The position numbers and the translations under genes are program-made. 64,000 bases of DNA from Caballeronia concitans (lineage in GTDB: Bacteria > Pseudomonadota > Gammaproteobacteria > Burkholderiales > Burkholderiaceae). The stretch is taken from positions 310,001 through 374,000 of the forward strand of contig NZ_FCNV02000001.1 in NCBI RefSeq assembly GCF_001544615.1. Direction: 5' to 3'. The first letter of the stretch is position 1; each line of letters starts with the position of its first letter. The notes below the pieces were generated by a model. The model saw only the letters and a program-made list of their open reading frames with translations. It was not told the DNA's origin and made no database searches. Below, in pieces: positions 2,507 through 62,370 of the stretch.

Positions 2507-3979
2507 ATGAACGACAAGCCTTCACGCCGGCACGCCGCCGCGCATCAGCCGTCGCGCGGGCCGTCCCGCATGAGCGCGCTCCATCTCGCGCCGGATTCGC
2601 TCGCGTTCGCGCTCGATGGCGCCGCGCAAGCCGTCGGCGCCGTGCGCGCGGGCTCGGCGTTGCCCGCCGCGATCCAGACGGTCGTGGCCTCGGGCAAGCA
2701 CGCGTCGGCGCGCGGCGCGATTCAGGACATCGCGTATCGCGCGATGCGCCGGCTCGGCATCGCCGATGCGCTCCTGCACAAGCTCGTGCGCAAGGTCCCG
2801 CCGCCGCATGTCGCCAACGTGCTCGCGTGCGCGTTCGCGCTCCTCACCGACGACGAAGCGCACGCCGCCTACGCGCCGTTCACGGTCGTCGATCAGGCCG
2901 TGAACGCGATTGCCGCGCGGCGCGAATTTGCCTTCGCGAAGGGACTCGTGAACGCGGTGCTGCGCAACTTCCTGCGTGAACGCGACGCGCTCATCGCGGA
3001 AGCCGCGACAAGCCCCGTTGCGCGATGGAACTATCCGCAATGGTGGATCGACGCGGTCCAGCGCGCGCAGCCGCAAGCCTGGGAGCGCATTCTGGAAGCG
3101 GGCAACGCGCAAGGCCCGCTCACGCTGCGCGTGAACGCGCGCCATACGAATGTCGCGGCTTACGTGGATCGCCTGAAAGCCGAGCATATCGAGGCCGATG
3201 CCGCCGGCCTGCACGCGGTGCGTCTCAGAACGCCGATGCCCGTCGATCGCATTCCTGGTTTCGCGGAAGGCGAAGTCTCGGTGCAGGACGCGGGCGCGCA
3301 ACTCGCGGCGCAATGGCTCGGCGCGCGCGACGGCATGCGCGTGCTCGATGCGTGCGCCGCGCCCGGCGGCAAGACGGGGCACATTCTCGAACTCGCGGAC
3401 GTGCATCTCGTCGCGCTCGAAAGCGATGCCGACCGCGCGGGCCGCATCGGTCAGAATCTCGAGCGCCTGAAACTTGCAGCGGACGTGCGCGTCGGCGATG
3501 CCGGCGATCCGTCGCCCTGGTTCGACGGCGCGCCCTTCGACCGCATTCTCGCGGACGTGCCGTGCTCGGCGTCGGGCATCGTGCGGCGCCATCCGGACAT
3601 TCGCTGGCTGCGCCGGCCATCGGATATCGCGGCGCTCGTCGTCGAACAAAGACGCATTCTTGAGGCGCTGTGGCCGCTCGTCGCGAAGGGCGGCGAATTG
3701 CTCTACGTGACGTGCTCGATCTTTCCGGAAGAGGGCGAAGAGCAGGCCCGCTGGTTTGGAGCGGCGCATGAAGATGCGGTACGATTGGACGCGCCGGGGC
3801 AACTGCTGCCGACGGCGCCGCGCGCGAGCGCGAGTGCGGTGCAAGAGTCACCGGACGGTACAAATATCGAAGGCCACGGTCCGGACAGTGCTGAGGGCGC
3901 GAGCCCGGCATCGAACCGGAACGCGGACTACATCGCGGACCACGACGGATTCTTCTACGCGCGCTTTCAGAAACGGTGA
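2507..3979 (+). CDS. rsmB: 16S rRNA (cytosine-967-C5) methyltransferase RsmB
   Basis: Methylates C967 of 16S rRNA using S-adenosylmethionine. The N-terminal part is the NusB-like RNA-binding domain; the C-terminal part is the Fmu/NOL1 methylase with the SAM loop DACAAPGGKTG near residue 281, the PC motif (DVPCSASG) near 350 and the catalytic TC motif (YVTCSIF) near 402. The ATG at 2507 gives 490 residues; an in-frame upstream ATG (2402) would add a poorly supported 35 residues, and ATG 2570 is another option. It is longer than E. coli RsmB (429 residues), partly from an N-terminal basic stretch and a low-complexity insert between the TC motif and the conserved end. The stop overlaps the next start. 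Confidence 0.95.
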   Translation: MNDKPSRRHAAAHQPSRGPSRMSALHLAPDSLAFALDGAAQAVGAVRAGSALPAAIQTVVASGKHASARGAIQDIAYRAMRRLGIADALLHKLVRKVPPPHVANVLACAFALLTDDEAHAAYAPFTVVDQAVNAIAARREFAFAKGLVNAVLRNFLRERDALIAEAATSPVARWNYPQWWIDAVQRAQPQAWERILEAGNAQGPLTLRVNARHTNVAAYVDRLKAEHIEADAAGLHAVRLRTPMPVDRIPGFAEGEVSVQDAGAQLAAQWLGARDGMRVLDACAAPGGKTGHILELADVHLVALESDADRAGRIGQNLERLKLAADVRVGDAGDPSPWFDGAPFDRILADVPCSASGIVRRHPDIRWLRRPSDIAALVVEQRRILEALWPLVAKGGELLYVTCSIFPEEGEEQARWFGAAHEDAVRLDAPGQLLPTAPRASASAVQESPDGTNIEGHGPDSAEGASPASNRNADYIADHDGFFYARFQKR

Positions 3980-9071: not shown

Positions 9072-9704
9072 ATGACGTACGCGGTAAAGGAAATCTTCTA
9101 CACGTTGCAGGGCGAGGGCGCGAACGCCGGGCGCCCGGCCGTGTTCTGCCGCTTCGCCGGCTGCAACCTCTGGTCGGGACGCGAGGAAGACCGCGCGGAC
9201 GCGGTGTGCCGCTTTTGCGATACGGATTTCGTCGGCACCGACGGCGAGAACGGCGGCAAGTACAAAACGCCTGCGGAACTCGTTGCGAAGATCGCATCGC
9301 TGTGGCCGGAAGGCGCGGCGCACAAGTTCGTCGTCTGCACGGGCGGCGAGCCGATGCTCCAGATCGATCAGCCTTTCGTCGACGCGCTGCACGAGGCGGG
9401 CTTCGAAATGGCGATCGAAACGAACGGTTCGATGCCGGTGCTCGAGAGCATCGACTGGATTTGCGTGAGCCCGAAGGCGGACGCGCCGCTCGTCGTCACG
9501 AAGGGCAACGAGCTGAAAGTGGTCGTGCCACAGGACAACCAGCGCCTGGCCGAGTACGAAAAGCTCGACTTCGAGTACTTCCTCGTGCAGCCGATGGACG
9601 GCCCGTCGCGCGACATCAACACGAAGCTCGCGATCGACTGGTGCAAGCGGCATCCGAAGTGGCGCCTGTCGATGCAGACGCACAAATACCTGAATATCCC
9701 CTGA
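9072..9704 (+). CDS. queE: 7-carboxy-7-deazaguanine synthase QueE
   Basis: Radical-SAM enzyme that contracts 6-carboxytetrahydropterin to 7-carboxy-7-deazaguanine. The 210-residue protein shows a cluster motif with 14 residues between the first and second Cys and two before the third (C-x14-C-x2-C, starting in FAGCNLW and ending in CRFCDTDF). This spacing, unlike the usual radical-SAM CX3CX2C, is the form known from Burkholderia QueE. GGEPMLQ is the SAM-binding GGE region. Middle gene of the que group. Confidence 0.96.
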   Translation: MTYAVKEIFYTLQGEGANAGRPAVFCRFAGCNLWSGREEDRADAVCRFCDTDFVGTDGENGGKYKTPAELVAKIASLWPEGAAHKFVVCTGGEPMLQIDQPFVDALHEAGFEMAIETNGSMPVLESIDWICVSPKADAPLVVTKGNELKVVVPQDNQRLAEYEKLDFEYFLVQPMDGPSRDINTKLAIDWCKRHPKWRLSMQTHKYLNIP

Positions 9705-9721
9705 AAGACGATCGAGCCGAC

Positions 9722-10168
9722 GTGCAGACGATTACCCGAAAACTCGAATTCGATGCGGGCCACCGCATCCCCGATCACCGCAGCCAGTGCCGCAACCTGC
9801 ACGGGCATCGTTACGTGCTCGAGATCACGCTGCAAGGCGACCTCGTCGATACGGAAGGCGCGCCGGATCGCGGCATGGTCATGGACTTCGCCGACGTGAA
9901 GTCGCTGGCGATGGAGCATCTCGTCAACAAGTGGGATCACGCGTTCATCGTCTATGAAGGCGATGCCAAAGTGCGCGAATTCCTCGCGTCGCTCGCGGAT
10001 CACAAGACCGTGGTCTTCGACCGCATTCCGACCGTGGAAAACATGGCGGCGGTCGCGTTCCGCATTCTCGCCGACGTCTACGACGCGCATTACGGCGTGA
10101 ATCTCAAGCTCAAGCGCCTGCGTCTCTACGAAACGCCGAACTGCTGGGCCGACGTCGAGCGCGAATAA
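9722..10168 (+). CDS. queD: 6-carboxy-5,6,7,8-tetrahydropterin synthase QueD
   Basis: Makes 6-carboxytetrahydropterin from dihydroneopterin triphosphate, the step before QueE. The GTG at 9722 gives 148 residues, the usual size; the frame stays open upstream but that part reads over queE and is not coding. Zinc-binding histidines are visible in FDAGHRI and LHGHRY, the catalytic Cys in SQCRNLHGH, and the conserved Glu in LYETPN. Lies 17 bases after queE. Confidence 0.94.
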   Translation: MQTITRKLEFDAGHRIPDHRSQCRNLHGHRYVLEITLQGDLVDTEGAPDRGMVMDFADVKSLAMEHLVNKWDHAFIVYEGDAKVREFLASLADHKTVVFDRIPTVENMAAVAFRILADVYDAHYGVNLKLKRLRLYETPNCWADVERE

Positions 10169-10330
10169 GCACGCGAACACGGTATGATCGCCCGGTGAGT
10201 CGCCTGTTCGGGCGGCCGCATCCTCTTGCATGAGACCAACTTCGGTCGACAAGAAACGGAGCGCGAGCATGCCGTCATCCTTCACGTCGTTCCTCGCATC
10301 GCGCGCACGTCCTTTTCAGGGAGCCGCGCG

Positions 10331-11113
10331 ATGAGCACCTTCACCAATACCCTCAAGCAGCGCTTTCGCGAACCCGGTCCGCTCTTCGGACTGTGGCTTT
10401 CGCTATGCAGCGCCGATGCCGCCGAAGCGCTCGCGCACGCGGGCTTCGACTGGCTGTGCATCGACATGGAGCACTCGCCGAACGATAGCCGCGATGTCGT
10501 CGAGCAGCTTCGCGCGATCGCGGCGGCGCATTTGCCGACCGAGCCGATCGTGCGCGTGCCGTTCGCCGAAGGCTGGCTCGTCAAGCGCGTGCTCGATGCA
10601 GGCGCGCGCACGCTGATGTTTCCGAACGTGCAATCGGCGGAAGACGCCGCGCGCGTCGTACGGCTCACGCAGTATCCGACCGAGGCGCAACTCGACGGAC
10701 TGCGCGGCGTCGCGGGCGCGGTGCGCGCGGCGGCATACGGTATGCGGCGCGATTACGTGTCGGGCGCGAACGCGCAGGTCGCGACGATCGTTCAGATCGA
10801 ATCGGTCGCCGCGCTCGAAGCCGTCGATGAAATCGCCGCGACGCCGGGCGTCGATTGCCTGTTCATCGGCCCGGCGGATCTCGCCGCGAGTCTCGGCCAT
10901 CTCGGCGACGCGAAGCATCCCGACGTCAACGCGGCCATCCAGAAAATCGCGGATGCGGCCGAGCGCGCGGGCATCGCGAGCGGCATTTTCGCGCTCGATG
11001 TCGCCAGCGCGCGGCAGTACGCGCAGGCGGGCATCAAGCTCGTGTCGATCGCGGCCGATGTGATGTGGCTGCTGAAGGCGACGCGGCAGGCGTTGCAGGA
11101 GGCGAGAGCATGA
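10331..11113 (+). CDS. HpcH/HpaI family aldolase
   Basis: Class II pyruvate-dependent aldolase of the 4-hydroxy-2-oxo-acid/citrate lyase beta family (260 residues from ATG 10331, preceded by AGGGAG). Visible motifs are CIDMEHS (metal-site start), the metal Glu in IVQIES, and GPADLAASLG with the metal Asp. The likely reaction is reversible cleavage of a 2-keto-3-deoxy sugar acid or hydroxy-oxo diacid to pyruvate and an aldehyde; the exact substrate is not determinable. Its stop overlaps the start of the next gene. Confidence 0.88.
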   Translation: MSTFTNTLKQRFREPGPLFGLWLSLCSADAAEALAHAGFDWLCIDMEHSPNDSRDVVEQLRAIAAAHLPTEPIVRVPFAEGWLVKRVLDAGARTLMFPNVQSAEDAARVVRLTQYPTEAQLDGLRGVAGAVRAAAYGMRRDYVSGANAQVATIVQIESVAALEAVDEIAATPGVDCLFIGPADLAASLGHLGDAKHPDVNAAIQKIADAAERAGIASGIFALDVASARQYAQAGIKLVSIAADVMWLLKATRQALQEARA

Positions 11114-11796
11114 AAAGCGCATGGCGTGGCGGCGCGGTGGCGGTAACGGCCGCGCTGTGTTTCCTGGGCGGCGGCGCGTACGCACAGGGCGCGCTCAAGG
11201 CCACGGATCTGGCGACGCAAAACGCCGTCGCCGATTACAACGCGGGCAACTTCGTCGCCGCGCGCTCGGAGTTTCGTCGTGCGGCGGAAAAGGGCAGCCG
11301 GCTCGCCGAGTTCAATTACGCGATGATGCTGCTCAACGGCGAAGGCGGCGCGGCGGACGTCGACGAAGGCAAGAAATGGCTGCGCCGCGCCGCCGACGCC
11401 AACATGACGCACGCGCAGTACGTCTACGGCAAGATGTATGACGACGGCCAGTTCGTGGAGAAGGACCCGGCGGAGGCGCATCGATGGTTCCTGCGCGCGG
11501 CCAGTCAAGGACACGTGCAGGCGGAACTGGCGCTCGCGAATCAGTTTCTCGATGGTCGCGGCACCGCGCGCGACAATACGCAGGCGTTCGCCTGGTACAA
11601 GAAAGCCGCGCAGGGCGGCGACATGACGGCGCAATACGTCGCGGGATCGTTCTACGAGCGCGGCGGCGATGGCGTCGAACGCAATCTCAACGTGGCGCGC
11701 GCGTATTACGCAGCCGCCGCCGCTCAGGGCGATCCGGCCGCGAAGCTGAAATACCAGCAATTGAGCGCGGAACTGGAGCGGCAAAAACCGCAATAA
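11110..11796 (+). CDS. Exported Sel1-repeat protein
   Basis: A 228-residue protein with a signal peptide (hydrophobic stretch then GAYAQG) followed by five or six Sel1-like (TPR-type) repeats, for example AEFNYAMMLLNGEG, AQYVYGKMYDDGQ and AELALANQFLDGRG. Such periplasmic repeat proteins act as protein-protein interaction scaffolds. It starts in an ATGA overlap with the aldolase stop, so the two are co-translated, although no functional link is obvious. Confidence 0.85.
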   Translation: MKSAWRGGAVAVTAALCFLGGGAYAQGALKATDLATQNAVADYNAGNFVAARSEFRRAAEKGSRLAEFNYAMMLLNGEGGAADVDEGKKWLRRAADANMTHAQYVYGKMYDDGQFVEKDPAEAHRWFLRAASQGHVQAELALANQFLDGRGTARDNTQAFAWYKKAAQGGDMTAQYVAGSFYERGGDGVERNLNVARAYYAAAAAQGDPAAKLKYQQLSAELERQKPQ

Positions 11797-11808
11797 GCGG
11801 CATCGGAA

Positions 11809-11843
11809 TAAAAAAACCGCGGTCGAGGCCGCGGTTCTTTTTT
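11809..11843. terminator. Bidirectional terminator between the Sel1 gene and rodA
   Basis: Eight-base-pair stem AACCGCGG / CCGCGGTT (11815-11822 with 11829-11836) flanked by an A run on the left and a T run on the right, so it can stop transcripts from both convergent genes. Confidence 0.9.
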
Positions 11844-11860
11844 GGTGGCTGCGAGAAACG

Positions 11861-13021
11861 TCAACTCTGCATCAGACGCTTCTGCCGCGCGACGCTCATG
11901 ATGAGGCCGACCGCGACGCCGAGCGTCGTGAGCGCGGTGCCACCGTAGCTCATGAACGGCAGCGGGACGCCGACGACCGGCAAAATCCCGCTCACCATGC
12001 CGATGTTCACGAACGCGTAGGTGAAGAACGCGAGCGTGAGCGATCCGGCCAATAATCGCCCGAAGAAGGTTGCGCCGTTCGCCGCGATATACAGCCCGCG
12101 CGCGATCAGCGCCATGTAGAGGAAGAGCAGCACGAGTCCGCCCGCGAGCCCGAATTCCTCGGAGAACACGGCGAAGATGAAGTCCGTGTGCTTCTCGGGG
12201 ATGAATTCGAGGTGCGCCTGCGTGCCCTTGAGCCAGCCCTTGCCGAGCGTGCCGCCGGAGCCGATCGCGATCACCGCCTGAATGGTATGGAAGCCTTTGC
12301 CGAGCGGATCGGACGTCGGGTCCAGCAGCGTGCAGATGCGATGCTTTTGGTAATCGTGCATCAGCGGCCAGTTCACTTCCGGCTGGCAGATGCGGTCCTG
12401 GAACACGGCGACGCTCGCCACCACGATCACCGCTGCCGCGAGCACCGGCACGATCAGCTTGAAACTCAGGCCCGCGAAATAAATGACGAACACGCCCGCC
12501 GCGAACACGAGCACCGCCGTGCCCAGGTCCGGCTGCTTCGCGATCAAGGCGACGGGCAGCATCAGAATCACGAAGCCGACGACGTAATCCCACCAGCGAA
12601 TGTTGCCCTCGCGCCGCTGGTAGTACCACGCGAGCATCAGCGGCATGGCGATCTTCATGATCTCCGAAGGCTGAATCACCACGCCGACGTTCAGCCAGCG
12701 TTTCGCGCCCTTGCGCGTCAGCCCGAACGCGGCGACGGCCACGAGCAGCGCGACGCCCACGGTGTAGAGCGGCACCGCGAAGCGCATCAGCGTCTGCGGC
12801 GGAATGTTCGCGAGCACCCACATCAGGCCGAACGTTAGCATGATGTTGCGCAACTGGTCCTCCACGCGGCCCGGCATGTCGAGACTCGCGCTGTACAGCG
12901 TGACGATACCCACGCACAGCAGCAGAAAAACGATCAGCGCGAGCGGGCGATCGAAGCCCGCGAACATGCGCTTCGCGCGCTCGATCCAGGCGTGCTTGTC
13001 GAATTGCAAATGCAGTTGCAT
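11861..13021 (-). CDS. rodA: Rod-shape peptidoglycan glycosyltransferase RodA
   Basis: SEDS-family polymerase that builds glycan strands with PBP2 in the elongasome. The 386-residue protein has about ten membrane segments, the catalytic-region motif AKQPDLGTA, and the C-terminal GVPLPFMSYGGTA signature. The ATG at 13021 is chosen because the frame further upstream reads across the mrdA tail as Arg-rich nonsense. It starts 10 bases after the mrdA stop, so the pair is surely co-transcribed. Confidence 0.96.
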   Translation of the reverse strand: MQLHLQFDKHAWIERAKRMFAGFDRPLALIVFLLLCVGIVTLYSASLDMPGRVEDQLRNIMLTFGLMWVLANIPPQTLMRFAVPLYTVGVALLVAVAAFGLTRKGAKRWLNVGVVIQPSEIMKIAMPLMLAWYYQRREGNIRWWDYVVGFVILMLPVALIAKQPDLGTAVLVFAAGVFVIYFAGLSFKLIVPVLAAAVIVVASVAVFQDRICQPEVNWPLMHDYQKHRICTLLDPTSDPLGKGFHTIQAVIAIGSGGTLGKGWLKGTQAHLEFIPEKHTDFIFAVFSEEFGLAGGLVLLFLYMALIARGLYIAANGATFFGRLLAGSLTLAFFTYAFVNIGMVSGILPVVGVPLPFMSYGGTALTTLGVAVGLIMSVARQKRLMQS

Positions 13022-13031
13022 GCCGATTTCC

Positions 13032-15329
13032 TTATTCGTCGATGCCGCCGGTCGGCACGAAAGTGCGTACGCCGTCGTTGCCGGGGCCGCGCGCCATCGT
13101 GGGCGAAGGCTCGGCCGGCGCGTTCTTCTGACCGCGCTTGCGGGCGGGCGCGGGCGTGGCCGACGACGCAGGCAGCGCAGCAGACGGCGCGGACGCCGCT
13201 TTCGGCTTCGCACCCGCCGATCCCGCCGCCGCCGCCGACGACGCCGGAACGGGAGGCGCTGAAGCCGCCTTCGCGACCGCCGGGTTCGAAGCGGCCGAAG
13301 GCGAGAACGCCGCCGACTGATTCGCAACCGATGCCGGCAGCGCCGCCGCAGCGGGCGATTGCGTGCCGCCGATCACGGGCAGTCCGGCGTCTTCGGTGGC
13401 GGACGCGGCGGCTGCGACGGCGGCCGCTTCAGCGCCCGGCTTCATGCGATCCACGAGGTAGTAATCGAGCACCTTGCGCGCGATCGGCCCGGCCGATTCC
13501 GCGCCCCAGCCGCCGTTTTCGACGATCAGCGCAAGCGCGATCTTCGGCTGCTCCGCCGGCGCGAACGCGATGAACAGCGCGTGATCGCGCAGATGCTCGG
13601 CGGTTGCGTGCCCGCGATAGTTCGCGCCCTGCAGCGAATAAACCTGCGCCGTACCAGTCTTGCCCGCCGCGAGATATTGCGCGCCGGCAAACACCTTGGC
13701 CGCCGTGCCGTTCGTGATGACGCCTTCCATCGCGCGCTTGATGAAATCGACGTCCTGCTGGCGCACCGGAATCTTGTCGCTCGGATCGCGCACCACGGTG
13801 CGTTCAGCCTTGGTGATCGGATTTTCGATATCGCGCACGAGGTGCGGCTTCATCACGACGCCGTTGTTCGCGAGCGTCGCCGTGGCGTGCGCGAGCTGCA
13901 GGATGGTGAACGAGTTGTACCCCTGCCCGATGCCCAGACTGATGGTTTCGCCTTCGTACCAGCGCTGTTGTTCGGGCTTGCGATACGCCTTGCGCTTCCA
14001 TTCCGTCGACGGAAGAATGCCGCGCGCCTCGCCCGCGATATCGATGCCGGTAATCTGCCCGAAGCCCCACGGCTTCATGAAGCCGGCCATCGCATTGACG
14101 CCGAGATCGTGCGCGAGCATGTAGAAGTACGTGTCGTTGGATACGACGATCGCGCGGTTCATGTCCACCCAGCCCTGACCGGAACGCACGTCGTTGCGGA
14201 ACGTGTGACCGCCGAACGTGTACGAACCGGGATCCTGGAAGCCCCAGCCCGGCGTGCGCTTGTGCAGCGTGAGCGCGGCGAGCGCCATGAACGGCTTGTA
14301 GGTCGAGCCCGGCGGATACGTGCCGTGCAACGGACGATTCAAGAGCGGATGATCCGGCGAATTGTTGAGCGCGTCCCACGTCTGCTGGTCGATGCCGTCG
14401 ACGAAGGAGTTCGGATCGAAGCTCGGCGCGGACACGAACGCGAGGACATCGCCCGTGGAAGGCTCGATTGCGACGAGCGCGCCGCGCTTGCCCGCGAACG
14501 CCTGCTCGGCCACCTGCTGCAAACCGATATCCAGCGACAGCACGAGATTGTTGCCGGGCGTCGCCTGCGTGCGCGACATCGTGCGCACGGGCCGGCCGCC
14601 CGCCGTGACTTCGACTTCCTCGAAACCGGTCACGCCGTGCAGCTCCGTCTCGTAACTCTGCTCGACGCCGATCTTGCCGACGTAATCCGTGCCCTTGTAG
14701 TTGTTCGCGTCCAGACGCGGATCGTAGTGATCGGAATTCGCGTCGTTGGCGTCGCTCGCATCGTCGATGCGTTCCTGGTCGCGCTGCGAAATGCGCCCGA
14801 TGTAGCCGATCACGTGCGCGGCCGTCGTGCCGAGCGGATATTGGCGGAACAGGCGCGCGCGCACTTCGACGCCGGGAAAGCGGAAGCGCTGCGCCGTGAA
14901 CTTGGCGACTTCTTCGTCGGTGAGGCGCGTGCGGATCGGCAGGCTCTCGAAATTCTTCGAATCCTCGAGCAGCTTCTTGAAACGCCGGCGATCCCGCGCA
15001 TCGACGGGAATGACCTGCGAAATGTTGTCGATGACTTCGTCGAGCGTGCCGTTGATCTTCGACGGCGTGATTTCGAGCGTGTACGCGGAATAGTTCTTCG
15101 CGAGCACCACGCCGTTGCGGTCGGTGATGATGCCGCGGTTCGGCACGATCGGCGCAACGGAGATGCGGTTTTCGTTCGCTTGCAGCGAGTATTTGCTGAA
15201 GTGCCAGACCTGCAGATAGAGAAAGCGCAGGCCGATCAGCCCGAAGCAGACGAACACGAACAGTCCCGCCGCCGCGACGCGCAAGCGGAACTTCGACAAC
15301 TGTTGCTCGGTGTTCTTGATTTCGGTCAT
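13032..15329 (-). CDS. mrdA: Penicillin-binding protein 2 (elongasome transpeptidase)
   Basis: Cross-links peptidoglycan during cell elongation. Residues 15-40 form the single membrane anchor; a pedestal domain follows, then the transpeptidase with SxxK (GSTYKPF, near residue 340), SxN (SND, near 397) and KTG (GKTGTA, near 556). At 765 residues it is about 130 longer than E. coli PBP2 because of an Ala/Ser/Pro/Lys-rich C-terminal tail after about residue 640, and it has an Asp/Asn-rich insert (about residues 190-210) in the pedestal. Part of mreB-mreC-mreD-mrdA-rodA. Confidence 0.96.
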   Translation of the reverse strand: MTEIKNTEQQLSKFRLRVAAAGLFVFVCFGLIGLRFLYLQVWHFSKYSLQANENRISVAPIVPNRGIITDRNGVVLAKNYSAYTLEITPSKINGTLDEVIDNISQVIPVDARDRRRFKKLLEDSKNFESLPIRTRLTDEEVAKFTAQRFRFPGVEVRARLFRQYPLGTTAAHVIGYIGRISQRDQERIDDASDANDANSDHYDPRLDANNYKGTDYVGKIGVEQSYETELHGVTGFEEVEVTAGGRPVRTMSRTQATPGNNLVLSLDIGLQQVAEQAFAGKRGALVAIEPSTGDVLAFVSAPSFDPNSFVDGIDQQTWDALNNSPDHPLLNRPLHGTYPPGSTYKPFMALAALTLHKRTPGWGFQDPGSYTFGGHTFRNDVRSGQGWVDMNRAIVVSNDTYFYMLAHDLGVNAMAGFMKPWGFGQITGIDIAGEARGILPSTEWKRKAYRKPEQQRWYEGETISLGIGQGYNSFTILQLAHATATLANNGVVMKPHLVRDIENPITKAERTVVRDPSDKIPVRQQDVDFIKRAMEGVITNGTAAKVFAGAQYLAAGKTGTAQVYSLQGANYRGHATAEHLRDHALFIAFAPAEQPKIALALIVENGGWGAESAGPIARKVLDYYLVDRMKPGAEAAAVAAAASATEDAGLPVIGGTQSPAAAALPASVANQSAAFSPSAASNPAVAKAASAPPVPASSAAAAGSAGAKPKAASAPSAALPASSATPAPARKRGQKNAPAEPSPTMARGPGNDGVRTFVPTGGIDE

Positions 15330-57577: not shown

Positions 57578-58189
57578 ATGAACACTATCGACGATCCGAT
57601 CCGGCGGCCCTTGCTCGTCACCGTGCCGGGGCTGCACGGCAGCGAGGGCGCGCACTGGCAAAGCTGGCTGGAGCGTCAGTACGTGGAGGCGTCGCGCGTG
57701 GAACAGGCCGACTGGGACGCGCCGCATCTCGATACGTGGGCGAGCGCCGTCGAAGCGCGGCTCGATGCGTTGCAGCGGCCCGTGGTGCTGGCCGCGCACA
57801 GCTTCGGCTGCCTCGCGACGGCGCATGCGCTTTCGCGCGGGCGTCTGGGGAATGTGCGGTCGAAGGTCGTGGGCGTGCTGTTCGTCGCGCCCGCGAGTCC
57901 GGCGAAGTTCCGCCTGGCCGGCCGCTTCGAGCCGATGCCGCTTGCGGTGCCCTCGATACTCGTCGGCAGCGAAACCGATCCGTGGATGCCCGTCGATCAC
58001 GCGCGCGATCTCGCGCAGCAGTTGGGCAGCGCGTTCGTGAATTTCGGCGATGCCGGGCATATCAACACGGCGTCGGGCTACGGCCCGTGGCCACATGCGA
58101 AGTATCTCGTCGATACGCTCGCGCATTGGGCGCCGCCCGTCGAACTCGGCGCGGAAGACGTGTTCCTGCGCGAACACGCGTACGGTTGA
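57578..58189 (+). CDS. RBBP9/YdeN-type serine hydrolase
   Basis: A 203-residue small alpha/beta hydrolase with the nucleophile Ser in AAHSFGCLA, catalytic Asp in GSETDPWMP and His in DAGHINTASGYG. This GHxN-SGxGxWP ending is typical of RBBP9/YdeN. ATG 57578 is assumed; ATG 57542 is possible. Physiological substrate unknown. Confidence 0.87.
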   Translation: MNTIDDPIRRPLLVTVPGLHGSEGAHWQSWLERQYVEASRVEQADWDAPHLDTWASAVEARLDALQRPVVLAAHSFGCLATAHALSRGRLGNVRSKVVGVLFVAPASPAKFRLAGRFEPMPLAVPSILVGSETDPWMPVDHARDLAQQLGSAFVNFGDAGHINTASGYGPWPHAKYLVDTLAHWAPPVELGAEDVFLREHAYG

Positions 58190-58284: not shown

Positions 58285-59292
58285 ATGGCGGCATACAGGA
58301 AGTTCGCGCTCGCGGCGAGCGTGGCGATGTGCATGGCGGCGGGCGTCGCGCATGCCGAGACCACGTTGCTCAACGTCTCCTACGACGTGACGCGCGAGCT
58401 GTACAAGGACATCGACGCGGCCTTCGTCGCCGATTACAAGAAGCGCACGGGCGAAACGGTGTCGGTGCGCCAGTCGCATGGCGCATCGAGCGCGCAGGCG
58501 TTATCGGTGATGCAGGGTCTTCAGGCCGATGTCGTCACGATGAACCAGCCGAACGACATCGACCTGCTCGCGGAGCGCGGCCAGCTCGTGCCGGCGAACT
58601 GGCGCACGCGCCTGCCGAACGCCAGCGCGCCGTACACGACGACGATGGTTTTCCTCGTGCGCAAGGGCAACCCGAAGAACATCAAGGACTGGAGCGATCT
58701 GGCGCGGCCCGGCGTGCAGGCGATCATCGCGAATCCGAAGACATCGGGCAACGGGCGATATACGTATCTCGCGGCGTGGGGCTACAAGAAGCAGCAAGGC
58801 GCGACCGATGCGCAGGCGCAGGACTTCGAAAAAGCGATCTTCCGTAACGTGCCGGTGCTCGATACGGGCGGACGCGGCGCGACGACGACGTTCACGCAGC
58901 GCGGGATCGGCGATGTGCTGGTGACGTTCGAGAACGAAGTCGGACTGATTGAGAGCGGCGCGGGTGCGAAGGATTTCGATGCGGTGTATCCGTCATCGAG
59001 TCTGGTGGCGGAGCCGCCGGTATCGATCGTCGACAAGGTGGTGGACAAGCGCGGCACGCGCAAGGAAGCGCAGGCGTATCTCGACTTTCTTTATACGGCA
59101 CAGGCGCAGGAGATCATCGCGCAACATCACTTGCGGCCGCGCAACGCGGACGTGCTCGCGAAACATGCAAGCGAGTTCAAGCCGCTGAAGACGTTCACGG
59201 TGGAGCAGATGTTCGGGAGCTGGCAGAAGGCGCAGCAGACGCATTTCGCCGATGGCGGGACGTTCGATCAGGTGGTGGTGGATAGAAAGTGA
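58285..59292 (+). CDS. sbp: Sulfate/thiosulfate-binding periplasmic protein (orphan)
   Basis: A 335-residue ABC-transporter solute-binding protein. A signal peptide ends in AGVAHAE; the mature part begins LLNVSYDVTRELY and has the sulfate-site stretches QSHGASSAQA and ANPKTSGNGRYT. Captures sulfate for a CysTWA permease, but no permease or ATPase gene follows in this window; a low-GC cassette begins instead on the other strand. Confidence 0.92.
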   Translation: MAAYRKFALAASVAMCMAAGVAHAETTLLNVSYDVTRELYKDIDAAFVADYKKRTGETVSVRQSHGASSAQALSVMQGLQADVVTMNQPNDIDLLAERGQLVPANWRTRLPNASAPYTTTMVFLVRKGNPKNIKDWSDLARPGVQAIIANPKTSGNGRYTYLAAWGYKKQQGATDAQAQDFEKAIFRNVPVLDTGGRGATTTFTQRGIGDVLVTFENEVGLIESGAGAKDFDAVYPSSSLVAEPPVSIVDKVVDKRGTRKEAQAYLDFLYTAQAQEIIAQHHLRPRNADVLAKHASEFKPLKTFTVEQMFGSWQKAQQTHFADGGTFDQVVVDRK

Positions 59293-59382
59293 GTCGGCGT
59301 AGCGGTCGGTAGTTGGCGAGGGCAAATAGATAGGCGTGTCCTCGCCGCCGACCCTACCGAATCGTGCGTCCCCTGTTATCGC

Positions 59383-59700
59383 TCATAGAACGTCGTGGAT
59401 GATTCGGGCCCTGCAGTCATCGAGTGATTTCTCGTCGTTTCGCATCACGCCGTAGGCATATCTGCAATAGACGGCGAGTTCGTCGCGAACATCAGGCGCT
59501 AACGCGTTGATGGGCAACGGATCGCCTTCATTCGCAAAAGGGTTGATGAATTTCCTTCTCAACGTCAGGCCCTTCTTGATGAAGTAGATCGCATGTTCGT
59601 CGTGGTCGATATACGAATAGTAATAGCCCACACCGAGCCATAGCCAGAGCAACAGCAATGTTGTGACGCTTAGGAGCAAGGCCACTGCCCTTCTTTTCAT
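59383..59700 (-). CDS. Membrane-anchored small protein, candidate immunity factor
   Basis: A 105-residue protein with a single N-terminal hydrophobic segment (about residues 7-29) and a 75-residue polar domain that should face the periplasm. No family recognised. It sits 6 bases after the amidase gene. That location, its size and its predicted periplasmic exposure fit an immunity protein that protects the producer's own cell wall from the amidase; this is inference. The base composition is visibly lower in G+C than the flanking genes. Confidence 0.6.
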   Translation of the reverse strand: MKRRAVALLLSVTTLLLLWLWLGVGYYYSYIDHDEHAIYFIKKGLTLRRKFINPFANEGDPLPINALAPDVRDELAVYCRYAYGVMRNDEKSLDDCRARIIHDVL

Positions 59701-59706
59701 AAGCGA

Positions 59707-60471
59707 TTATCCTCGCGGCGCACTTAGCGATAGCTCCGAACGCAGCAGCTTGACAATGTCCATTCCAAGATTGCCCGGGCAAGCTCGCCCTTTATGCGTT
59801 GCGATCTGTTGATACTCTCTATGCCCGCCCAGCCGTTCGACGTTGAAAAACTCCATGAGCACGGAACACAAGGCACGGCACGCCATAACCTGGGCGTGCG
59901 TGGGCTCGTCGTGCCAAAGAACCGTCCGGTCGGTGACGATTCCGCCGATATTTCTGAGCTTATCGATGAATGACAGGCGACCGTATTCCTGCTGGTACGC
60001 CTCGCCTGCCTGCACGAGGTTGGCTAGGAAAACGATCCCGATCTTGCCGGTGTTATCGCCCGCAACGTGTTCGCCGGTGAATCTGATATCCCGTGCCTCA
60101 TAAATCTCTCCCTGACACGAGATTGCATAGTGATACCCGGCGTCATTGAATGGCGGGCTTCGGCCCATGTCCTCCGCCTGTACGCGTTGCATCTCCTGAA
60201 TGGACGGCGCACCGCACGAGTAACTGCGGCCCGCGTGATGCAGAACGATATCGTGGTAATCCCAATGGCTTTCGCGCAACACACCTCTCGGCGGTATGGC
60301 ATGCCATGAGGAGCGCTCGATCAGGCTGTAGCCACTTCGGGCGAGCGCCGTGATTATTGCTTGGCGAGTCGCGCCCCGGTTATTCACCGCGATCGAGATT
60401 GCCGAGGTACGGCTGCTCTCGGACGAAGTGCGGGTTTTCGTCCAATGACTGATGTTGTAATCCGAAGCCAA
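59707..60471 (-). CDS. N-acetylmuramoyl-L-alanine amidase (PGRP/Amidase_2), candidate T6SS effector
   Basis: Zinc amidase that cuts the bond between MurNAc and the stem peptide. Read from TTG 60471, 5 bases after a perfect AAGGAGG, it has 254 residues and no signal peptide. Zinc ligands are His in VLHHAGRSY and the His and Cys of LGGHREYQQIATHKGRACPG; the catalytic-site Tyr is in DAGYHYAISC. The first 60 residues are polar and unlike the family core. The gene starts right at the PAAR stop and is followed by a membrane-anchored protein, which suggests delivery by type VI secretion. Confidence 0.83.
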   Translation of the reverse strand: MASDYNISHWTKTRTSSESSRTSAISIAVNNRGATRQAIITALARSGYSLIERSSWHAIPPRGVLRESHWDYHDIVLHHAGRSYSCGAPSIQEMQRVQAEDMGRSPPFNDAGYHYAISCQGEIYEARDIRFTGEHVAGDNTGKIGIVFLANLVQAGEAYQQEYGRLSFIDKLRNIGGIVTDRTVLWHDEPTHAQVMACRALCSVLMEFFNVERLGGHREYQQIATHKGRACPGNLGMDIVKLLRSELSLSAPRG

Positions 60472-60472
60472 T

Positions 60473-61066
60473 TCAACCTCCTTGCGCGGGAATGAGATTG
60501 CGCTTCGGCGATGAAAATATGACGTGTATATCGATGTCATGCGGGTCGTTGGTCTCGACCTTGGCGTAGCCATTCGCGTCCGTCTTGCATGCCTGTTCGA
60601 CACCCGCCACTACCGCGATGATCTCCTGATTGCACAAGGGAAGAGCGGTTGCGCTGTCTGTCACGTAGAACCAGCTTGCGCAATTCTCGCTTTGTTCACT
60701 TGGAGGGACGACTGTCTGTGCAACACTCTCCGCGCTTTTCTTGGCGTCAATTACACCGAGGCTCTCAGCCAGATCGTCATACCATGCCTCGCCCGCAAGT
60801 TGCGCGAATATGCGTGGATTTTGCGGACAACCGCAGACGATCAGATCGCTGTCTAGCGCAATCTCACTGCCGCCAATGGTCATGCGACGCGGACCGCCGT
60901 CTTTGGCGATATAGCCCGTCGTTCGACAGATTGGGCAGTAGGCGGCCCCGTTGATAAGCGCGGCCTGGTGTCCGGCATTGCCGAACGTGAAGATCGGCCC
61001 ATTTTGATAGCAGACTTCGCCACCATTGCTCAGTTTGTCGCCGGCAACAGCAATTCGGCGCATCAT
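60473..61066 (-). CDS. PAAR-domain protein with C-terminal extension
   Basis: A 197-residue protein. Residues 1-90 are a PAAR domain (VAGDKLSNGG, ALINGAAYCPIC, IVCGCPQNPR), the zinc-tipped spike cap of the type VI secretion needle. Residues 125-195 look like a small beta-sandwich (WFYVTDSATALPLCNQE), perhaps an adapter for cargo. No VgrG, Hcp or Tss gene is in the window, so it is an orphan spike gene. Its last codons hold the ribosome site of the amidase. Confidence 0.85.
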   Translation of the reverse strand: MMRRIAVAGDKLSNGGEVCYQNGPIFTFGNAGHQAALINGAAYCPICRTTGYIAKDGGPRRMTIGGSEIALDSDLIVCGCPQNPRIFAQLAGEAWYDDLAESLGVIDAKKSAESVAQTVVPPSEQSENCASWFYVTDSATALPLCNQEIIAVVAGVEQACKTDANGYAKVETNDPHDIDIHVIFSSPKRNLIPAQGG

Positions 61067-61356
61067 GACAGTAACTCGAACAACTGTTCGTTATGCTTAT
61101 TTTGCCATGTATCGCTATCCTTGAATTCGAACGCTTACGCGTGTTGATCGGAATCGTCAGGATACGAGAGCAGAGGCAGTCTGCACATCAAGCGCCGACC
61201 GGAAAGCGCCGAAATTGACAAACAATGACAACGTCCGGAAGTAGCGGCAGACGGGCTTCGGCGGCATGCGAGTTTGATCGACCGCGCGCGGCGTGGAGTG
61301 CGCGGTTGACGCCAAATATAAGGGAGCCCGCAACCAACGCGAGCCCCTTCAACCCC
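61067..61356. other. AT-rich leader of the PAAR cassette and bioB 3' region
   Basis: About 290 bases. The first 60 are AT-rich and probably hold the cassette promoter on the minus strand, but I cannot assign the boxes. Near 61321-61351 an imperfect GC-rich hairpin followed on the minus strand by TTATATTT could terminate bioB. Confidence 0.4.
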
Positions 61357-62370
61357 TTACCCCGCGCTCACCCCATTCGCCGCTTCCGCCCGCATCCCCA
61401 GCCGGTCGATCAGCTTCCTGTCCGCTTCCGCTTGCGGATTGCTCGTCGTCAGCAACTGATCGCCGTAGAAGATCGAATTGGCGCCCGCAGCAAAACACAG
61501 CGCCTGCAACGCCTCATCCATTTGCTCGCGTCCCGCCGAGAGACGCACCATTGCCTTGGGCATCGTGATCCGCGCCACCGCGATCGTCCGCACGAATTCG
61601 AACGGATCGAGCGCCTCGGTGCCCGTCAGCGGCGTGCCCGCCACCTGCACGAGATTGTTGATCGGCACCGATTCCGGATACGGCTCCATGTTCGCCAGTT
61701 GCGAGATCAGCCCCGCGCGCTCGCGACGCGATTCGCCCATGCCCACAATCCCGCCGCAGCACACGTTGATGCCCGCATCGCGCACATGTTCCAGCGTGTC
61801 GAGGCGATCCTGATACGTGCGCGTCGAGATGATCTGGCCGTAGAACTCAGGCGACGTATCGAGATTGTGGTTGTAGTAATCGAGGCCCGCATCGCGCAAG
61901 GCCGACGCCTGATGCGCCTCCAGCATGCCGAGCGTCACGCACGTTTCCATGCCCATCGCCTTCACGCCGCGAATCATCTCCTTGATCGGCTCCAGATGAC
62001 GATCCTTCGGATTGCGCCACGCCGCGCCCATGCAGAAGCGCGTCGCGCCGTTGGCCTTCGCGGTCTCGGCGGCCTTCAGCACGGCATCGACTTCCATCAG
62101 CTTGTCGGCCTTCACGCCGGTCTCGTGATGCACCGACTGCGGACAGTACGCGCAATCTTCCTCGCAGCCGCCCGTCTTGATGGACAGCAGCGTGGACAAC
62201 TGCACCGCGTTCGGATCGAAATGCTCGCGATGCACCGTCTGCGCGCGATACAGCAAATCGTTGAACGGCAGCTCGTACAGCGCGACGACATCGGCGACGC
62301 GCCAGCGCGCGGGCGTCTGCGGCGGCGTCAGAGTTTGAGTGGCGATTTCGGCAGTGATGGTCTGCGTCAT
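61357..62370 (-). CDS. bioB: Biotin synthase
   Basis: Radical-SAM enzyme inserting sulfur into dethiobiotin. The 337-residue protein has the cluster motif [11 protein letters not shown] near residue 70, the YYNHNLDTS motif and the conserved Arg/Cys of the [2Fe-2S] site ([24 protein letters not shown]). Last gene of bioF-bioD-bioB, 6 bases after bioD. Confidence 0.98.

What the first reader, a model, noticed from the sequence alone, without database searches (positions are those of the whole stretch)
59383..61066. Low-GC orphan PAAR-amidase-immunity cassette: candidate type VI secretion effector module
Seen: three consecutive minus-strand genes encode a PAAR spike protein, a zinc peptidoglycan amidase without signal peptide, and a protein with one N-terminal membrane segment. 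A sampled stretch (59521-59580) is 27/60 G+C, against 42/60 in a stretch just outside (57901-57960). Known: PAAR proteins cap the T6SS needle and are often encoded beside effectors and their immunity proteins. Inference: this is a horizontally acquired antibacterial module inserted between sbp and the bio operon.
Basis: partly seen in the sequence, partly recalled or inferred. Interest (0 to 1): 0.7.

Follow-up and report, generated by a model that had tools for sequence, protein, structure and literature searches.

The report
Swappable needle-tip toxin cassette
Three small genes look like a complete antibacterial weapon cartridge for a bacterial injection needle (tip, wall-cutting enzyme and antidote), and relatives carry the same cartridge with tip, docking piece, toxin or antidote exchanged, so it is a good natural case for studying how such weapons are re-armed.

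Summary
On the minus strand lie a PAAR protein (60473-61066), a PGRP-type zinc amidase (59707-60471, TTG start) and a 105-aa protein with one N-terminal membrane segment (59383-59700); G+C is 55.8% in a 64.3% window. The genome has two T6SS sheath genes, and this is its only PF05488 PAAR match. The amidase occurs in 16 of 58 congeners. Of 10 inspected genomes with the sbp/bioB gap, 5 are empty, 3 hold this module, one holds PAAR-Tae4-membrane protein, one is unresolved. In three congeners the module lies beside tssC. Best reading: a T6SS cargo-effector cassette of interchangeable parts. Against: sister G047 keeps the module without sheath or Hcp, several copies are broken, and nothing is bench-tested.

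The parts
60473..61066 (-). PAAR spike-tip protein, 197 aa: N-terminal PAAR domain (about residues 1-95), variable linker (about 96-127), C-terminal adaptor-like domain (about 128-193)
   Evidence: PF05488 1.4e-9; domain split and swaps
60488..60685 (-). C-terminal adaptor-like domain of the PAAR protein (WFYVxDSxTGxPLxNQ...TDxxGYAxxET...HVxFSSPKRxLxP); Ig/CnaB/transthyretin-like by motif only (recalled)
   Evidence: Profile A4; upstream of the amidase at 29 of 32 other unique loci; no significant Pfam or PDB match
59707..60471 (-). Zinc N-acetylmuramoyl-L-alanine amidase (Amidase_2/PGRP type), 254 aa from TTG, no signal peptide: presumed T6SS cargo effector
   Evidence: PF01510 7.4e-11; PGRP structures 4.1e-11 by sequence; HH78-79 and Y113 in all 16 aligned rows, H217 and C231 in the 14 rows intact there
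59383..59700 (-). Presumed immunity protein, 105 aa, N-terminal membrane anchor and soluble remainder
   Evidence: hydropathy; same family downstream of the amidase at 18 of 32 other unique loci
61085..61234 (-). Shared leader region: TTTGTCNATTTC box, then a TCGTATNCT box about 52 bp on, then a conserved ATGCCAAAAATCAAGCATAACGAA box (a possible upstream ORF, broken here by a 2-bp gap relative to relatives)
   Evidence: Alignments; model R1 finds 30 places in 20 of 58 congeners
61323..61347 (-). Terminator-like hairpin of bioB; by eye a similar GC-rich hairpin lies between sbp and bioB in empty relatives

Best explanation
This is a horizontally exchanged T6SS cargo-effector cassette. The PAAR domain caps a VgrG trimer and so fixes which needle is used (inferred). 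The C-terminal domain of the same protein is the docking piece for the next gene's product, the zinc amidase, which rides out on the tip (inferred from linkage). In the victim's periplasm the amidase would cut the lactyl-L-Ala bond of peptidoglycan (inferred from family and conserved residues). The 105-aa membrane-anchored protein, facing the periplasm, would block the enzyme at home (inferred). What is shown by sequence: the unit is combinatorial. PAAR domains are replaced ahead of a closely similar adaptor-amidase block, and the same PAAR domain types head other adaptor-effector blocks (Tae4, M35-like). A common leader region precedes many copies in this genus, and copies occupy a few recurring chromosomal gaps as well as the T6SS cluster itself.
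For: T6SS genes present. Only PF05488 PAAR match of the genome. A Tae4 toxin module (2.1e-25) behind a PAAR gene in the same sbp/bioB gap of G040. Module between tssC and a PP2C gene in G007 and G002, and beside tssC at a contig end in G006; in the window's own orthologous cluster tssC and the PP2C gene are adjacent. Adaptor upstream at 29 of 32 other unique amidase loci, two of the three misses being contig ends. One of two small membrane proteins at 29 of 32, the misses being two contig ends and one broken amidase. Domain swap: G006b vs G039 PAAR domain 21%, adaptor 83%, amidase 88%, IMM 80%; nucleotide identity steps from 34-50% to 84-94% at about nt 375. Horizontal origin: G+C, patchiness, dS 0.79-1.61 for module genes against 0.30-0.39 for flanking genes, window against G047 and G048. 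Amidase has no signal peptide and keeps its presumed metal ligands.
Against: No bench evidence for secretion, toxicity or immunity. Sister G047 keeps all three genes in open frames but has no VipB match, no Hcp match and one TssF, in a VgrG-TssF pair, so the module can exist without a working T6SS. Many copies elsewhere have broken frames (G003, G018, G001, G005, G019). One amidase locus (L200) has no adaptor despite enough upstream sequence. Which of the two T6SS it would arm is not shown. dS was by NG86 and is near saturation for the module.
Confidence: 0.86

Rival explanations
1. The amidase is a housekeeping or phage-derived wall hydrolase (AmpD-like recycling or lysis enzyme) that merely sits beside a PAAR gene.
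For: The named matches outside the family are PGRPs and phage lysozymes/amidases.
Against: Phage and plasmid matches are weak: best 4e-6 in phages, and of 25 records in both collections only 1 covers 80% of the query. A PAAR adaptor stands upstream at 29 of 32 other unique loci and a small membrane protein follows at 29 of 32. Patchy presence (16 of 58) is unlike a recycling enzyme.
Confidence: 0.04
2. The PAAR tip belongs to an extracellular contractile injection system (eCIS) or a prophage tail rather than a T6SS.
For: One paper (passages seen) states that PAAR subtypes, including two genes of Caballeronia glathei, occur with both eCIS and T6SS.
Against: No phage/eCIS sheath (PF04984) match in the window's genome, whereas two VipB sheaths are present and three congeners carry the module beside tssC.
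Confidence: 0.03
3. The cassette is a relic, or is kept as an antidote only: the tip and toxin no longer fire, and the 105-aa gene protects against neighbours carrying the same toxin.
For: G047 keeps the module without sheath or Hcp matches; broken copies exist (G003, G018, G001, G005, G019, G049); the short upstream ORF of the leader is damaged in the window.
Against: In the window all three frames are open, the catalytic residues are kept, and the host has T6SS genes. An antidote-only locus should lose the toxin first.
Confidence: 0.07

Closest known systems
Orphan PAAR-effector-immunity operons (Chromobacterium violaceum CV_2124-2126 and CV_2664-2666; PMC13324451, passages seen)
   Same: PAAR gene, putative cell-wall effector and putative signal-peptide immunity gene in one likely operon outside the T6SS clusters; there the PAAR proteins were recovered with VgrG3 by mass spectrometry.
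   Different: Those effectors are a protein without predicted domains and a lytic transglycosylase, not a zinc PGRP amidase; exchange of PAAR domain against adaptor was not mentioned in the passages seen.
PAAR-Tae4-Tai4 neighbourhoods of Acinetobacter (PMC6838775, passages seen)
   Same: PAAR gene beside an amidase effector and its antidote.
   Different: Tae4 is another amidase family; the window's enzyme matches Amidase_2 only.
VgrG with C-terminal transthyretin-like domain binding Tle1 (EAEC; described in PMC10433429 and PMC7376260, passages seen)
   Same: A short extension of the spike acts as a docking piece for a separately encoded cargo toxin.
   Different: Here the presumed docking piece is on the PAAR protein and the cargo is an amidase; fold and binding are untested.
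AmpDh3 of Pseudomonas aeruginosa (PMC12494544, passages seen; its T6SS export is recalled)
   Same: Peptidoglycan amidase cutting between lactate and L-Ala, reported by its authors to hydrolyse prey cell wall.
   Different: Described there also as a periplasmic cell-wall turnover enzyme; no linkage with a PAAR adaptor in the passages seen.

Membership tests
T6SS cargo-effector module (PAAR, toxin, antidote) | PAAR domain at the spike tip | tested here: met
   PF05488 1.4e-9, above cut-off
T6SS cargo-effector module (PAAR, toxin, antidote) | T6SS machinery in the same genome | tested here: met
   Two VipB, four Hcp, four TssF, four VgrG matches; not met in sister G047
T6SS cargo-effector module (PAAR, toxin, antidote) | Toxin gene without export signal beside a specific antidote gene | tested here: met
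   By sequence only: hydropathy; small membrane protein at 29 of 32 other unique loci
T6SS cargo-effector module (PAAR, toxin, antidote) | T6SS-dependent secretion, toxicity and neutralisation | not testable with these tools
   Needs bench work
Amidase_2 / PGRP zinc amidases | Pfam match above cut-off with conserved metal ligands (His, His, Cys) and catalytic Tyr (roles recalled) | tested here: met
   42.9 bits against cut-off 26; HH78-79 and Y113 in 16 of 16 rows, H217 and C231 in 14 of 16 (G043 is truncated before them, G006a broken at its contig end)
Tae1-Tae4 T6SS amidase families | Match to a Tae family (cysteine amidases, recalled) | tested here: not met
   The amidase matches PF01510 only in Pfam and nothing in NCBIfam at E 1; the G040 gene at the same site does match Tae4
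Transthyretin-like spike adaptor domains | Transthyretin-like fold | tested here: inconclusive
   Pfam nothing significant; PDB best 0.065, scaffoldin modules; structure prediction switched off
Transthyretin-like spike adaptor domains | Specific linkage with one cargo toxin | tested here: met
   Linkage with the amidase at 29 of 32; other C-terminal domains with Tae4 and M35
eCIS | eCIS/phage-type sheath gene | tested here: not met
   PF04984: no match in the genome
Site-specific integrative element | Integrase or transposase, flanking att or target repeats | tested here: not met
   Three ORFs fill the gap at the window site; no flanking repeat beyond shuffles in G000 or G047, one clear (G048) and one borderline (G040, 18 against shuffle maximum 17)

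The most novel reading that the evidence does not exclude
A combinatorial arming system: a dedicated leader region plus interchangeable PAAR domains (choosing the VgrG/needle), interchangeable C-terminal adaptors (each choosing one toxin) and interchangeable antidotes, recombined at the PAAR-adaptor linker and dropped into a few standing chromosomal slots, so that a strain changes its T6SS load by exchanging cassettes without changing its machinery. The leader would be both a common regulatory signal and a homology anchor for exchange.
Probability: 0.45. Interest if true: 0.72.

Novelty: new variant of a known kind. Interest (0 to 1): 0.55.

Why it matters
How one T6SS comes to carry many different toxins is an open practical question. 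Here nature supplies matched sets: similar adaptor and amidase behind different PAAR domains, the same PAAR type before different adaptors and toxins, and the same amidase family beside two unrelated antidote-like proteins. These sets make it directly testable whether the PAAR domain picks the VgrG and the C-terminal domain picks the cargo, and they give sequence handles (adaptor profile, leader profile) for finding unnamed toxins next to PAAR genes. NCBIfam returned no model for the amidase.

Tried and rejected
Phage or plasmid source: tblastn found 6 phage and 19 plasmid records, weak relatives only. eCIS: no sheath match. Mobile-element mechanism: no repeats beyond shuffles at the window site and no integrase among the ORFs of the gap; only G048 clearly shows a second copy of the sbp 3' end, G040 is borderline. 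Leader box as a coding upstream ORF: it can be read as a short ORF that mostly ends at the PAAR start, but substitutions do not spare amino acids (differences by codon position 312/270/160; 43 synonymous against 495 non-synonymous codon differences among 18 distinct sequences), so I treat it as a DNA/RNA element. Leader as a general T6SS promoter: away from the modules, no stretch of the held loci, T6SS cluster loci L085, L086, L121, L128 and L129 included, scored below E 1. No sigma-70-like promoter was found at 59200-61500. Leader outside the genus: no match at E 1 in the 14 other-genus amidase loci, of which two (L188, L191) hold too little upstream sequence to tell. Transthyretin fold by sequence: not significant. 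Spearman correlation of PAAR-domain with amidase identity 0.09 (p 0.38), adaptor with amidase 0.26 (p 0.014), n = 91 non-independent pairs: direction as expected, weak, not used as proof. The first dS run mis-framed sbp in the window; redone. In one search the clustering threshold merged two PAAR sub-types, and G006:C133 fell into its own C-type because its PAAR frame runs on past the domain; its adaptor type rests. My first tally counted G019:C92 as having a PAAR gene; one search shows only an adaptor remnant there.

Full report
What is there. Three closely packed minus-strand genes, 61066 down to 59383. PAAR: PF05488, 1.4e-9. Amidase: PF01510, 7.4e-11, and PGRP structures by sequence. The third is a 105-aa protein with one N-terminal hydrophobic segment and no Pfam family above cut-off. 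NCBIfam names none of the three above cut-off. The amidase most likely starts at the TTG at 60471 behind a strong ribosome site, 1 nt after the PAAR stop.

Is there a T6SS? Yes. The genome (6.17 Mb, 47 contigs) has two TssC/VipB genes on contigs C12 and C9, and four VgrG, four Hcp and four TssF matches. The C9 cluster carries its own DUF4280 gene (that this family is PAAR-like is recalled). The window's PAAR is the only PF05488 match in the genome at E 0.001, so it may be the tip protein of the C12 system; this is inference.

Presence and absence. The amidase is in 16 of 58 congeners at 1e-10, the 105-aa family in 13 of 58 at 0.001, VipB in 49 of 58. At family level the amidase is in 30 of 398 genomes, 6 of 25 genera, at 1e-25. 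I inspected 23 bioB loci (window, 2, 20) out of 56 genomes with a bioB match. In 10 of the 23, sbp lies beside bioB. Of these 10: three hold PAAR-amidase-105 aa (window, G047, G048), one (G040) holds PAAR-Tae4-membrane protein, five are empty (G012, G039, G038, G049, G037), and one (G033) has about 740 bp that I did not identify. The Tae4 assignment is 2.1e-25. So the gap between these convergent genes is a reused landing place.

Other landing places. In G007 and G002 the module lies between tssC and a PP2C-type phosphatase gene of the T6SS cluster; in G006 it lies beside tssC and the contig ends on its other side. In the window's own orthologous cluster tssC and the PP2C gene are 31 bp apart. 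Further sites are shared by at least two species, judged by common flanking proteins: beside an exonuclease III-like gene (G002:C313, G019:C13, G043), beside ompA/ubiG-like genes (G018, G039), and the G035/G028 and L032/L033 pairs (gene names recalled from sequence).

Horizontal signal. Between the window and G047 / G048, dS is 1.61/1.54 (PAAR), 0.99/0.79 (amidase) and 1.44/0.95 (105 aa), against 0.39/0.37 (sbp), 0.36/0.34 (bioB) and 0.30/0.32 (bioD). Between G047 and G048 it is 0.64, 0.50, 0.47 against 0.22, 0.24, 0.17. The module has not simply descended with its flanks. The seven other modules measured are poorer in G+C than their loci (0.505-0.589 against 0.616-0.666). No integrase or flanking repeat was found at the window site. 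In G048 a second copy of the sbp 3' end lies on the far side of the module (alignment score 34, best of 300 shuffles 16); G040 is borderline (18 against 17), G000 and G047 show nothing beyond shuffles. The G048 scar would fit import by homologous recombination through sbp.

The PAAR protein has a second domain. Behind the PAAR domain and a variable linker comes a ~65-residue domain, WFYVxDSxTGxPLxNQ...TDxxGYAxxET...HVxFSSPKRxLxP. Its profile lies upstream of the amidase at 29 of 32 unique held loci other than the window (31 of 34 scored, where L176 and L177 repeat L032 and L033). Two of the three misses are contig ends and one (L200) is a true exception; among the 29, L074 is a remnant (22.6 bits) and L076 is matched in two pieces. 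Not every place listed had a held locus. By motif it looks like an Ig/CnaB/transthyretin-type domain (recalled), but no search was significant and structure prediction is off. Papers whose passages I saw describe transthyretin-like extensions of VgrG as docking pieces for cargo toxins (PMC10433429, PMC7376260, PMC13324451).

Domain exchange. Identity of PAAR domain / C-terminal domain / amidase / 105 aa: G006b-G039 21/83/88/80; G007-G002b 21/90/75/no 105-aa gene in G002b; window-G039 70/57/42/33. Nucleotide identity in 75-nt bins changes within one or two bins at about nt 300-375 from the PAAR start. G039 against G006b: 34-50% up to nt 374, 84-94% from nt 375 to 1349, 66-94% further on. G002b against G007: 37-49%, then 77-86% to nt 974 and falling after, with 60-65% in the two bins upstream of the gene. 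G002b against a Tae4 module of G012: 77-88% to nt 299, then 30-49%. The exchange point is the linker.

A shared leader. Upstream of PAAR many modules share a region of about 155 bp; G002:C313 matches it only weakly, and G035, G028 and G043 were not matched. A sequence-only model from nine copies (R1) finds 30 places in 20 of 58 congeners. Of the 30, 25 are followed within about 115 nt by a PAAR-domain match, one of these (G049) a 21-residue remnant; leaving out the nine training places it is 16 of 21. By content: 13 amidase modules (one, G019:C92, with only an adaptor remnant in place of the PAAR gene), 8 PAAR-Tae4 modules, 2 PAAR-M35 modules (PF14521, 2.1e-11 for G009; the G057 one in two frames), 1 PAAR with another, apparently interrupted, downstream gene (G016), 1 truncated PAAR (G018:C11), 2 relics (G049, and one on contig C5 of the window's own genome without any PAAR), and 3 without an adjacent PAAR (G002:C197, G009:C8, G039:C3). 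Broken or disturbed frames were seen in G018:C9, G001, G005, G019:C78 and G006:C133. Tae4 modules have their own C-terminal domain, M35 modules a third, and two or more PAAR types occur with each of the three. The leader was not found in loci of other genera nor, below E 1, away from modules in the T6SS cluster loci held.

Two antidote-like families. At 18 of the 32 loci the 105-aa family follows the amidase on the same strand. At 12 loci, one of which (L033) has both, a sequence-unrelated family of about 107-123 aa with an N-terminal hydrophobic segment lies on the opposite strand (profile comparison probability 0.5%). In all, 29 of 32 carry one or the other; the other three are two contig ends (L072, L083) and one broken amidase (L075). 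This near-obligate pairing is the best sequence evidence that these proteins are antidotes and the amidase a toxin.

The enzyme. In the 16 amidases aligned, HH78-79 and Y113 are present in all, and H217 and C231 in the 14 rows intact there; G043 is truncated and G006a is broken at its contig end. That these are zinc ligands and catalytic tyrosine is recalled from AmpD/PGRP enzymes.

Results against. G047, a 3-contig genome (98% complete) with the module in open frames, has no VipB and no Hcp match and one TssF, in an isolated VgrG-TssF pair; either it lost its T6SS recently, or part of the genome is missing, or the module has another use there. Several copies, some of them in reduced genomes, are broken. 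The adaptor role and the antidote role rest on linkage.

Known and new. Orphan PAAR-effector-immunity operons are known (C. violaceum, PMC13324451; Acinetobacter PAAR-Tae4, PMC6838775; passages seen). PAAR-carried toxins at large were surveyed in PMC8651086 and PMC11148199 (passages seen; the latter kept only PAAR proteins with at least 120 residues after the core domain, and the window's has 116 after its Pfam match). In ten literature searches, judged by listings and the passages read, I found no description of this amidase family with its adaptor, its two antidote-like partners or the shared leader; most subscription journals are not held. I therefore call it a new variant of a known kind.

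Noticed in passing
G000:C5:7863-8003 (locus L167, about 2864-3004): A second copy of the leader region in the window's own genome with no PAAR gene behind it: a relic of a lost module.
   Followed up: partly
G000:C12:365001-385000 (L126) and G000:C27:2402-4189 (L127): Two further TssF genes, one near an Hcp, while VipB matched only the two main clusters: partial or divergent T6SS-like loci.
   Followed up: partly
G047:C1:954242-959011 (L124, about 9242-14011): Isolated VgrG-TssF pair in a genome without VipB or Hcp match.
   Followed up: partly
L068 about 9247-9305 (G048): Second copy of the 3' end of sbp on the bioB side of the module, a possible scar of import by homologous recombination.
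   Followed up: partly
L174 3430-5781 (G009:C8): 783-aa protein about 600 bp behind a leader copy, no Pfam family at E 0.01: candidate large effector without PAAR.
   Followed up: no
L071 7167-7538, L073 8750-9073, L074 8385-8708, L076 8274-8597: Second antidote-like family on the strand opposite the amidase; the one member scanned has no Pfam match.
   Followed up: yes
L090 2766-3089 (G040): 107-aa protein with hydrophobic stretches behind Tae4 in the sbp/bioB gap, no Pfam family: candidate Tae4 antidote.
   Followed up: no
window about 61085-61108: The short upstream ORF box of the leader is interrupted in the window by a 2-bp gap relative to relatives.
   Followed up: partly
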